A stretch of DNA of 64,000 nucleotides, taken from NCBI GenBank assembly GCA_023014335.1, contig JAECYW010000002.1, positions 3,844,001 to 3,908,000 on the forward strand, written 5' to 3'. Under the pieces are notes generated by a model. The model searched no databases. It was not told the DNA's origin and worked only from the letters and a program-made list of their open reading frames with translations. Numbering within the stretch: position 1 is the stretch's first letter; every line of letters begins with the position of its first letter. The DNA comes from Galerina marginata (taxonomy: Eukaryota > Basidiomycota > Agaricomycetes > Agaricales > Galerinaceae). Below, piece after piece: positions 54,580 through 57,500 of this stretch. A program made the position numbers and the translations under genes.

Positions 54580-57500
54580 TCAATCCCATGATGGGCTCGA
54601 CTGGTACGAGTGACTCCGTGCTGTCCCATTCTGGTTGTGAGCAGGGCTTGTAGGCGTCCACGATGACGGTGAAGTCGGGCTATAGCCGGGAGAGGCAGGT
54701 GCTAGGATGGTAAAGTTAGAAGAACGATCAACTGGACGTCAAGACCGATCATGCTCACAGTATGACGGGGCTAAGATTATTATTGAATGTTGATGGTGAG
54801 CGTCATGCTTCTACAGAACGAGGTGATAAACTTACAAGCAGGTGAATACGCGGGGGAAGTGGGGGCTACAGTAGAATGATAATAAGCGAAGAACAGGACG
54901 TTGTCTAGGTGAAACACTGACAATATTTCGGCGAAGAGGGGGATGCCATTGGCGAGGTAGGCGAATATTTAGGAGACGATGGTGACATATTATGAGCAGG
55001 CGCTATGGGGAAAATGATGGTTAGAACGAGACTTCGATGCAATCACGGCAGACTTACAGGCTAGAATTGGTTAGAAAGTGAGAGTGTTTTCCTTAGCAAG
55101 ACATGAAGCATATAGTTATTGAACTTACTCGGAGAGTCTGAAATTTCGATAACGTCAGCGAGGACAGAATAAGAAGTTACAAGAAACACCTACATCGGGG
55201 GGAAGCAGGGCTGAAGGACGGGCTTGTTGGTGAATAGCGAGGAGATGTCGGACTAAATGATGGCGACTGTGGGCTATACCGAGGCGACGTAGGCGAGAAT
55301 GAAGGAGAAGTCGGGGAATAGCGTGGGCTAGTGGGAGAATATCCGGGAGAAGTAAGGTTAAGAGCAGGCGACGTGGGCGAGTACGTAGGCGAAGTGGCCC
55401 CTCTCGATCGGTCGTATAATGGAGACGTGGCATAAGGCGACGTTCCAAATGGCGACGTTGCCCCACCAAATGGCGACTGAGGAACAAAACTTGGCGACGT
55501 CGGTGTATAGGCGTTGGGCGAGCTAGGACTGTAGCCTCCACCTGGCGACATACCTCCAGCCCCAAGTGGACTCTGACCGAACGGGAGGAACTGGAAGCTG
55601 GACGCATCTTCTCCGCTGTTGGACGCAAGCGGAGAGAAAGCAGCCGAGGCTGGGTCGCCTTTGAATAATCCATCCTGCCACATAGGAGAATGCGTGTCAT
55701 AAGGGGTCATCGCGACTTGTCCAGGTGTCATTCCGCCGTCCAGCTGAGCTGTAAGCATTGATTGGACAGGGAGACGGTGGTCCACAATCGCATCCTTCAG
55801 CATATCTATGTCCAACGCCACCTCGAAAGCACCAGTGCCCATAGGTGCCATCTGCCCAAACATGACATTCTCCGCAATACCGTGGCAGTCGTCCTTCTCG
55901 CCAACGGCTGCGGCCTCCATCAAAATTTCGACCGTCTCCTCAAACGAGCAGCGCATTAAAGCTCCGGTGTCGGCTCGGTTGATACCATGGCGTGTGATGG
56001 CCATGAGAGTTCCGCGATGCGTCATGAGGTCGCAAAGAAGGGCGAGATGTCGATAGTTCACATAAGAACCGTCGAACTCGATAACGCCACGGAGTTCCTT
56101 CATGATTGCTGCCCGGGCGGCCTCAATGCCCAAAACATTAAAAATCTCGACACAGCTGTTGGAATACGTCCTCCGGAAGTCAACGCCATCGATACACATC
56201 ACAGTCTTCAAGTTGATACCATCCGTTTCCAACACCCATTCCTTCTCCTGCCCAGTCACAATACCACCATCAGCAGAGACAGTGACTTTATCCTGCTCCG
56301 TCAAGAACACACGGTTGATCCCCTTTACACCACGGAGACTGACAGAGTTCAGCATCGTGTTTTCGAGCTGCCGCAAGAAGATATCCTCCTCAATGGAACC
56401 CATGCCATCGTCTTCCTTGTCTGGACTACCCAACACACGACAACGTATGACAAGCTTTTCGGAGTTATCTTCACTCCAAATGACGAAGAGATCCGTTTTG
56501 AAGCTCTCCGCAATCCGACCCGCAACGTAGTGCATTGTCAGCTTGCGATCGATCATCTTCGCACGATCAAGCTCGAGACGGAGGAGCCATGGAGATTGAA
56601 GATGGAGCTTTGATTCGATTTCCTCATCAGGAATGGCGAAGAAGGATTCCACGAAGACGGAATCTTCTTCAATGATGGTAGACGTTGGATCAGGGTCATA
56701 CCAGATTTCGACGGCAGCAGTTACGGTACGAAGCGAGGTATATGCTAGTTCTTGCTGAACATTCTTCGCCAGGGCAGACGAACGGGATATTTCATGGTCG
56801 AGGTATACAGTTAACGAGGGCGTCTTGATATTTGTGGCAACATTGATGATTTCCTTCAAACGCGGTACACCAAGGGTGACATTTTTACTGGAGACACCAG
56901 CATAATGGAAAGTGTTGAGCGTCATTTGGGTGGCCGGTTCTCCAATTGACTGGGCAGCCAGTGTGCCACACATCTCTCCTGGGTGTACAATCGATTGGTT
57001 AAACTTTGTCTCCACCTCACCAATCACCCAATCGAAAGCTTCTCGCGTTAGATGGAACTTCTCCAAAACACGGCGGGATGCAAAGGAAGCCCGAAGATGC
57101 ATCCTGAAGGTTAGTGTCGAGTTCTCCTGGGCCTCCTTGCTGAGATGGTCGTCGCCACGGACGACAACCAATCGTTTGCCAAGCTCATGCACAGCATCGA
57201 CAATGTAGGCGGGGTTGAGGTCACTTGGTTTGCGACGATCAACGTGGAAGATTTGGATAGCATTCTGGACAATGCGGTGGAGATTGACAGGAAGATAGTG
57301 GGGTTGGGTAGTCGGTACTCGAGGGAAGACAAACTCGCGAAGGAGTCGGCGATCTTCCACCAAACGGGCATATTCCTCATCCAGCTTCACTTGGAGTTCG
57401 AGGGAACTGTCGTCGATGCCAACCTGCAAGACACCAGGGAGAAAGCCGCCGGCTGGGTCTGTGACATCTATACGGTAATTGTGTTCAAATTCCCTGTCAT

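What the first reader, a model, noticed from the sequence alone, without database searches (positions are those of the whole stretch)
54922..55194. RPB1 heptad tail encoded through 9-nt and 3-nt microexons
Seen in sequence: after the main exon ends at 55194, a 9-nt exon (55137-55129) and a 3-nt exon (55060-55058) are needed to reach the next clearly heptad-coding exon (55002-54922). The junctions spell Y|SP, A|CC-T|CG, rebuilding YSPTSP. All flanking introns are 55-68 nt with GT, AG and a CTAAC or CTGAC branch. Three-nucleotide exons are very rare in fungi, and here the exon lies in the tail of the polymerase that couples transcription to splicing. Standard gene finders would end the protein at 55177 and lose about 85 residues.
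Basis: partly seen in the sequence, partly recalled or inferred. Interest (0 to 1): 0.87.

Follow-up and report, generated by a model that had tools for sequence, protein, structure and literature searches.

The report
One polymerase repeat split over four exons
In a mushroom's gene for its main RNA-making enzyme, one seven-amino-acid repeat of the tail is spelled by four exons, two of them only 9 and 3 letters long; related mushrooms seem to share this layout, and many of their public protein records look wrong at this spot.

Summary
[quoted passage not shown] 18 exons, 1753 residues). Among nine in-frame, stop-free ways to splice the stretch, only the 9+3 chain rebuilds YSPTSP; 1 of 20,000 simulated sequences did so. 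A second allele keeps both exons and every GT/AG, while the three flanking introns differ by 10 changes, two of them indels.

Relatives agree. Eleven of 11 unnamed relatives that read through the tail without introns carry the heptad. Of 73 named annotations, 30 lack exactly its 12 nt, 7 lack exactly the 3-nt codon, 9 run into the intron after the 9-nt exon, 3 into the intron before it, 16 (15 clearly) have it, 7 differ otherwise and 1 has no anchor. Six of six Hymenochaetales proteins are intact, so that order may lack the split.

The tail has two more small exons (30 and 12 nt). All six tail introns are phase 1, so exons 13-17 could each be skipped in frame; I saw no evidence of skipping. 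Verdict: real, probably old, constitutive microexons; a new member of a known kind. No RNA of this species and no DNA of relatives was available.

The parts
54580..61278 (-). RPB1 gene, ATG to stop, 18 exons, 1753 residues
   Evidence: frame-intact exon model; seven Rpb1 domains plus the C-terminal repeat family over their Pfam cut-offs
55194..58635 (-). exon 12 (3442 nt), ends with the first base of the Tyr codon of the split heptad
55138..55193 (-). intron 12, 56 nt, phase 1; holds the unspliced stop at 55177
   Evidence: three allelic differences including one deletion
55129..55137 (-). exon 13, 9 nt (ACTCTCCGA)
   Evidence: unchanged in the second allele
55061..55128 (-). intron 13, 68 nt, phase 1, GTAAGT donor, CTAAC branch-like motif
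   Evidence: four allelic differences including one insertion
55058..55060 (-). exon 14, 3 nt (CCT)
   Evidence: unchanged in the second allele
55003..55057 (-). intron 14, 55 nt, phase 1, GTAAGT donor, CTAAC branch-like motif
   Evidence: three allelic differences
54922..55002 (-). exon 15, 81 nt
   Evidence: one allelic difference, a GCT to GCC change by position
54866..54921 (-). intron 15, 56 nt, phase 1
54836..54865 (-). exon 16, 30 nt
   Evidence: unchanged in the second allele
54771..54835 (-). intron 16, 65 nt, phase 1
   Evidence: 62 nt in the second allele
54759..54770 (-). exon 17, 12 nt
   Evidence: unchanged in the second allele
54702..54758 (-). intron 17, 57 nt, phase 1
54580..54701 (-). 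exon 18, 122 nt including the stop; protein ends SSPSWD
   Evidence: unchanged in the second allele

Best explanation
The 9-nt and 3-nt segments are genuine, constitutively included microexons of RPB1: one heptad (Y S P T S P A) of the polymerase tail is spread over four exons. Shown here: splice signals, frame, phase, uniqueness of the 9+3 solution, allelic pattern, agreement with relatives at the protein level. Inferred: the short introns are recognised across the intron, so a 3-nt exon need not be bound as an exon; factors can hardly occupy both sides of 3 nt at once, so introns 13 and 14 probably leave one after the other, helped by GTAAGT donors and CTAAC branch-like motifs. Also inferred: the layout was present in a common ancestor of Agaricales, Boletales, Polyporales, Russulales and Gloeophyllales, and was gained after Hymenochaetales split off or lost there.
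For: Only 1 of 9 in-frame, stop-free chains gives YSPTSP; 1 of 20,000 simulations does. The second allele keeps exons 13 and 14 and all GT/AG ends; the three introns differ at 10 columns with two indels. 11 of 11 unnamed intron-free relatives have [YF]SPTSP; five of them are full length on contigs with 277-607 nt to spare and one partial has 73 nt to spare, against 1437 nt of introns in this gene. 49 of 73 named annotations break at the predicted boundaries: 30 lack 12 nt, 7 lack 3 nt, 9 read into intron 13, 3 into intron 12. Close pairs differ at just this site: P0001 vs Laccaria amethystina at 98.6% identity; P0046 vs two Lactarius annotations at 96.2-96.8%.
Against: No RNA of this species; no genomic DNA of any relative was seen, so the 9/3 split in relatives is inferred from annotation errors. 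16 of 73 named annotations (15 clearly) have the heptad, including 6 of 6 Hymenochaetales; there the split may be absent. Some of the 30 short proteins could be true for their species. Twelve unchanged bases between two alleles are weak evidence alone.
Confidence: 0.93

Rival explanations
1. A single 191-nt intron (55193-55003) is removed whole; the heptad letters inside are coincidence or a remnant.
For: The direct join is in frame (T|CG, giving R-SP) and 30 of 73 named annotations of relatives show it. This gene has one long intron, 542 nt.
Against: 0 of 11 intron-free relatives show R-SP, including close relatives of Lactarius species annotated R-SP. An exact heptad arose in 1 of 20,000 simulations. 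16 of 17 introns of the gene are 49-69 nt.
Confidence: 0.03
2. The 9-nt exon is used but the 3-nt exon is not (YSPT-P).
For: In frame and stop-free here; 7 of 73 named annotations show it.
Against: 0 of 11 intron-free relatives show it. It breaks the heptad. The CCT exon has a GTAAGT donor and a CTAAC-TAG end upstream.
Confidence: 0.03
3. The small tail exons are regulated in-frame cassettes that vary tail length; the 9+3 pair is one of them.
For: Six of six tail introns are phase 1 against 3 of 11 elsewhere in the gene. 5 of 5 inner tail exons have lengths divisible by three against 3 of 11 of the other inner exons (P = 0.013).
Against: 11 of 11 intron-free relatives include exons 13-14; 11 sequences cannot exclude minor forms. 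Repeated T-starting Ser and Tyr codons could favour one phase by themselves.
Confidence: 0.06

Closest known systems
1-nt exon of CYP621A P450 genes in Fusarium (PMC12940212; abstract and Introduction seen)
   Same: Ultra-small fungal exon inside a conserved protein motif, missed by annotation, found by comparing orthologues
   Different: Smaller (1 nt), backed there by transcript reads, not a multiple of three, in a metabolic gene of Fusarium; ours is a 9+3 pair in RPB1, apparently shared by several orders
Microexons of P450 genes in Phanerochaete chrysosporium (PMC1184071; passages seen)
   Same: Very short exons (shortest 6 nt) between short introns in a mushroom-class fungus
   Different: P450 family genes; no 3-nt exon in the passages seen
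Xlr2 microexon of Trichoderma (PMC11121469; passages seen)
   Same: Fungal microexon
   Different: A regulated switch between isoforms of a transcription factor; no sign of regulation here
Plant microexons of 1-15 nt (PMC8831610; start of abstract in listing)
   Same: Conserved, often misannotated or missed
   Different: Plants; found there from RNA-seq
3-bp micro-exon of homothorax in Drosophila (PMC7392893; start of abstract in listing)
   Same: Internal exon of 3 nt
   Different: Alternatively spliced animal gene

Membership tests
[quoted passage not shown]
   PF04997, PF00623, PF04983, PF05000, PF04998, PF04992 and PF04990 all over their cut-offs
[quoted passage not shown]
   PF05001 at 50.3 bits, cut-off 20.3, though no single stretch passed alone; 15 [YF]SPxSP motifs in residues 1521-1753
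Constitutive microexon (internal exon of 30 nt or less) | Canonical AG before and GT after the exon, flanked by proper introns | tested here: met
Constitutive microexon (internal exon of 30 nt or less) | Present in mature mRNA of this species | not testable with these tools
   no RNA of this species held
Constitutive microexon (internal exon of 30 nt or less) | Encoded residues present in spliced relatives | tested here: met
Constitutive microexon (internal exon of 30 nt or less) | Same exon boundaries in DNA of relatives | tested here: inconclusive
   no DNA of relatives; annotation errors point to the same boundaries in 49 of 73
Regulated cassette microexon (switch type) | Isoforms with and without the exon | tested here: inconclusive
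   0 of 11 intron-free relatives lack it; too few to exclude minor forms

The most novel reading that the evidence does not exclude
In mushroom-forming fungi the end of the polymerase II tail is a chain of in-frame cassette exons (9, 3, 81, 30, 12 nt; all introns phase 1), so splicing efficiency sets how many heptads the polymerase carries: a feedback from the spliceosome onto the tail that helps recruit it.
Probability: 0.06. Interest if true: 0.85.

Novelty: new member of a known kind. Interest (0 to 1): 0.5.

Why it matters
It offers a natural test of how a spliceosome that works with short introns handles a 3-nt exon, in a single-copy essential gene that appears to keep the same split across several orders of mushrooms. 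It also suggests that many public mushroom RPB1 proteins have a wrong tail: 49 of 73 checked deviate at this one site. That would affect counts of tail repeats and phosphorylation sites in fungi, and the site could serve as a benchmark for annotation pipelines.

Tried and rejected
Tail paralogue in the same genome as an internal control: none found; the tail query matched only the two alleles, on C12 and C7. PF05001 as a genome query rang nowhere, the 14 control genomes included, so it says nothing.

Introns 12-17 as copies of one mobile intron: of 15 pairs, 12 vs 17 was reached by 2 of 200 shuffles and 13 vs 14 by 8 of 200; the other 13 by 34 or more of 200. With 15 tests I do not read common origin from this.

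DNA of relatives: the viral-contig scan gave one 37% match on a virus contig, of no use here. The session allowed no metagenome scan and I made none.

Deeper lineages: the search from P0137 listed one named Serendipita record (P0168), intact at a comparable place but too different to line up the exons with confidence.

Rows chosen, dropped or doubtful: the 73 named proteins are the named mushroom entries (72) plus Pisolithus, picked by hand; Serendipita was not in the count. The 29 unnamed ones come; P0011, P0069 and P0096 (no fungal-type anchor), and unnamed entries new, were not counted. Each search listed only its best 120. P0106 counts as full only because its anchor falls on another repeat, so 15 of 73 are clearly full; P0086 (other) has the same problem; P0116 has no anchor. 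A Fisher test of 11/11 vs 16/72 gives P = 8e-7 but treats related species as independent. Species names were typed from the search tables; orders of genera not looked up are recalled.

Full report
What it is. [quoted passage not shown] Among the proteins fetched, the closest over residues 485-1480 are from Psilocybe (94.5%), Laccaria (93.8%) and Agrocybe (93.1%), so the host is probably an agaric. The genome held has 69.3 Mb in 43 contigs and a second RPB1 on contig C7, 98.6% identical over 7475 bases, as expected of two nuclear haplotypes.

The observation. Exon 12 ends at 55194 with T. A 9-nt exon (55137-55129, ACTCTCCGA) and a 3-nt exon (55060-55058, CCT) follow, then an 81-nt exon, 55002-54922. 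T|AC TCT CCG A|CC T|CG CCT GCT reads Y S P T S P A: one heptad over four exons. The introns are 56, 68 and 55 nt, GT..AG, with CTGAC, CTAAC and CTAAC motifs near the 3' end; introns 13 and 14 both start GTAAGT. After exon 15 come exons of 30, 12 and 122 nt, the last ending SSPSWD and a stop. All six tail introns are phase 1, against 3 of the other 11 introns.

Is it chance? In the 191 nt between exons 12 and 15, 30 chains of GT-AG introns (40 nt or more) with at most two inner exons (30 nt or less) are possible. Fourteen are in frame, 9 have no stop, and one spells the heptad. First-order Markov simulations gave exactly YSPTSP in 1 of 20,000 and any heptad-like filling in 6 of 20,000.

The second allele. 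The exon model lifted to the C7 allele gives a full protein with two differences, both D to E. Exons 13, 14, 16, 17 and 18 are identical, and the 17 introns all keep GT and AG. Introns 12, 13 and 14 differ at 3, 4 and 3 columns, with a one-base length change in introns 12 and 13. Over the gene, introns differ at 38 of 1439 aligned columns and exons at 64 of 5262. Indels fit introns rather than coding sequence; twelve unchanged bases are weak evidence alone.

Relatives without introns. Three protein searches (best 120 listed each) returned RPB1 proteins. Of 29 unnamed fungal-type proteins, 18 stop inside intron 12, reading R-C as an unspliced ORF would, and 11 run through the tail; 11 of these 11 have [YF]SPTSP at the site. 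Five of the 11 are full length on contigs with 277-607 nt to spare, and one partial protein has 73 nt to spare; the window's gene has 1437 nt of introns (sum over), so these six must come from spliced RNA. The other five cross at least six intron positions unbroken and I infer the same. I did not see the contigs' DNA, and the tool does not explain its source labels.

Annotated relatives. Of 73 named mushroom proteins, one search finds: full heptad 16 (15 clearly); exactly 12 nt left out (R-SP) 30; exactly the 3-nt codon left out (YSPT-P) 7; read into intron 13 (YSP-S, as A|GT would give) 9; read into intron 12 (R-C, as T|GT would give) 3; other 7; no anchor 1. Among the 'other', Hebeloma, Laccaria and Plicaturopsis have A-P where S-P is expected, as reading through the AG of intron 14 (G|CG) would give; that is inference. 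Close pairs make the point: P0001 is 98.6% identical to the Laccaria amethystina annotation but has YSPTSP for its FFVLAP; P0037 and P0046 are 94.8-96.8% identical to the annotations of Lactarius pseudohatsudake and L. deliciosus but have the heptad that these lack. Such errors mark the same boundaries in Boletales (Suillus), Russulales (Lactarius), Gloeophyllales (Heliocybe), Polyporales (Fibroporia) and Agaricales (Laccaria and others) (taxonomy; further genera by recall).

Against a simple picture: the heptad is intact in 6 of 6 Hymenochaetales (genera looked up; three entries are Sanghuangporus) and in scattered members of other orders such as Amanita, Agaricus, Daedalea and Cubamyces. Good annotation or loss of the introns would both explain that, and I cannot tell which without DNA. 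Read-through at the places of introns 15-17 (Y-C, A-C, Y-C) in Roridomyces, Suillus decipiens, Hydnomerulius and Chiua suggests that those introns are shared too (P0082 and P0094 also).

How it works. Shown: signals, frame, uniqueness, allelic pattern, protein-level agreement with relatives. Inferred: recognition across short introns and removal of introns 13 and 14 one after the other, because factors can hardly occupy both sides of a 3-nt exon together. A role for PRP-40/PRPF40A, reported for animal microexons (PMC8378409, PMC11463390; starts of abstracts in the listing), is a lead only.

What is known. A 1-nt fungal exon is published (PMC12940212; abstract and Introduction), 6-nt exons are reported in Phanerochaete (PMC1184071; passages), and a Trichoderma microexon acts as a switch (PMC11121469; passages). 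Searches pairing microexon terms with basidiomycete, RPB1, Coprinopsis, mushroom, Basidiomycota or Agaricomycetes, and polymerase-tail terms with intron and Agaricomycetes, listed no paper that by title or start of abstract treats this site. The library lacks most subscription journals. The passages I saw of one paper on fungal polymerase tails (PMC9451162) do not discuss tail introns.

Verdict. The open and more interesting question is whether the in-frame, all-phase-1 layout is ever used to vary the tail. Nothing here shows that it is.

Noticed in passing
window 54759-54865 (minus strand): Two more small tail exons, 30 nt and 12 nt; several relatives' annotations also look short or run into introns here.
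   Followed up: partly
window 60253-60794 (minus strand): Intron 3 of RPB1 is 542 nt long while the other 16 introns are 49-69 nt.
   Followed up: no
G000 contig C13 (L004, L006): Two opposite-strand copies of an RPB1-like fragment, 65-74% identical to the window's protein over residues about 525-1114, with stops; no tail was found there.
   Followed up: partly
G000 contig C22, about 92-279 kb: 16 of the genome's 29 matches to the Rpb1 domain 5 family lie on this 671-kb contig; several form mirror-image pairs about position 201.8 kb. Origin not examined.
   Followed up: no
P0009 and P0110 (both named Gymnopilus junonius): Two RPB1 records of one species with different outcomes in the tail, perhaps two haplotypes.
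   Followed up: no
G000 contig C7, L009: The second RPB1 allele differs from the window by two D-to-E changes and by more change per base in introns than in exons.
   Followed up: yes
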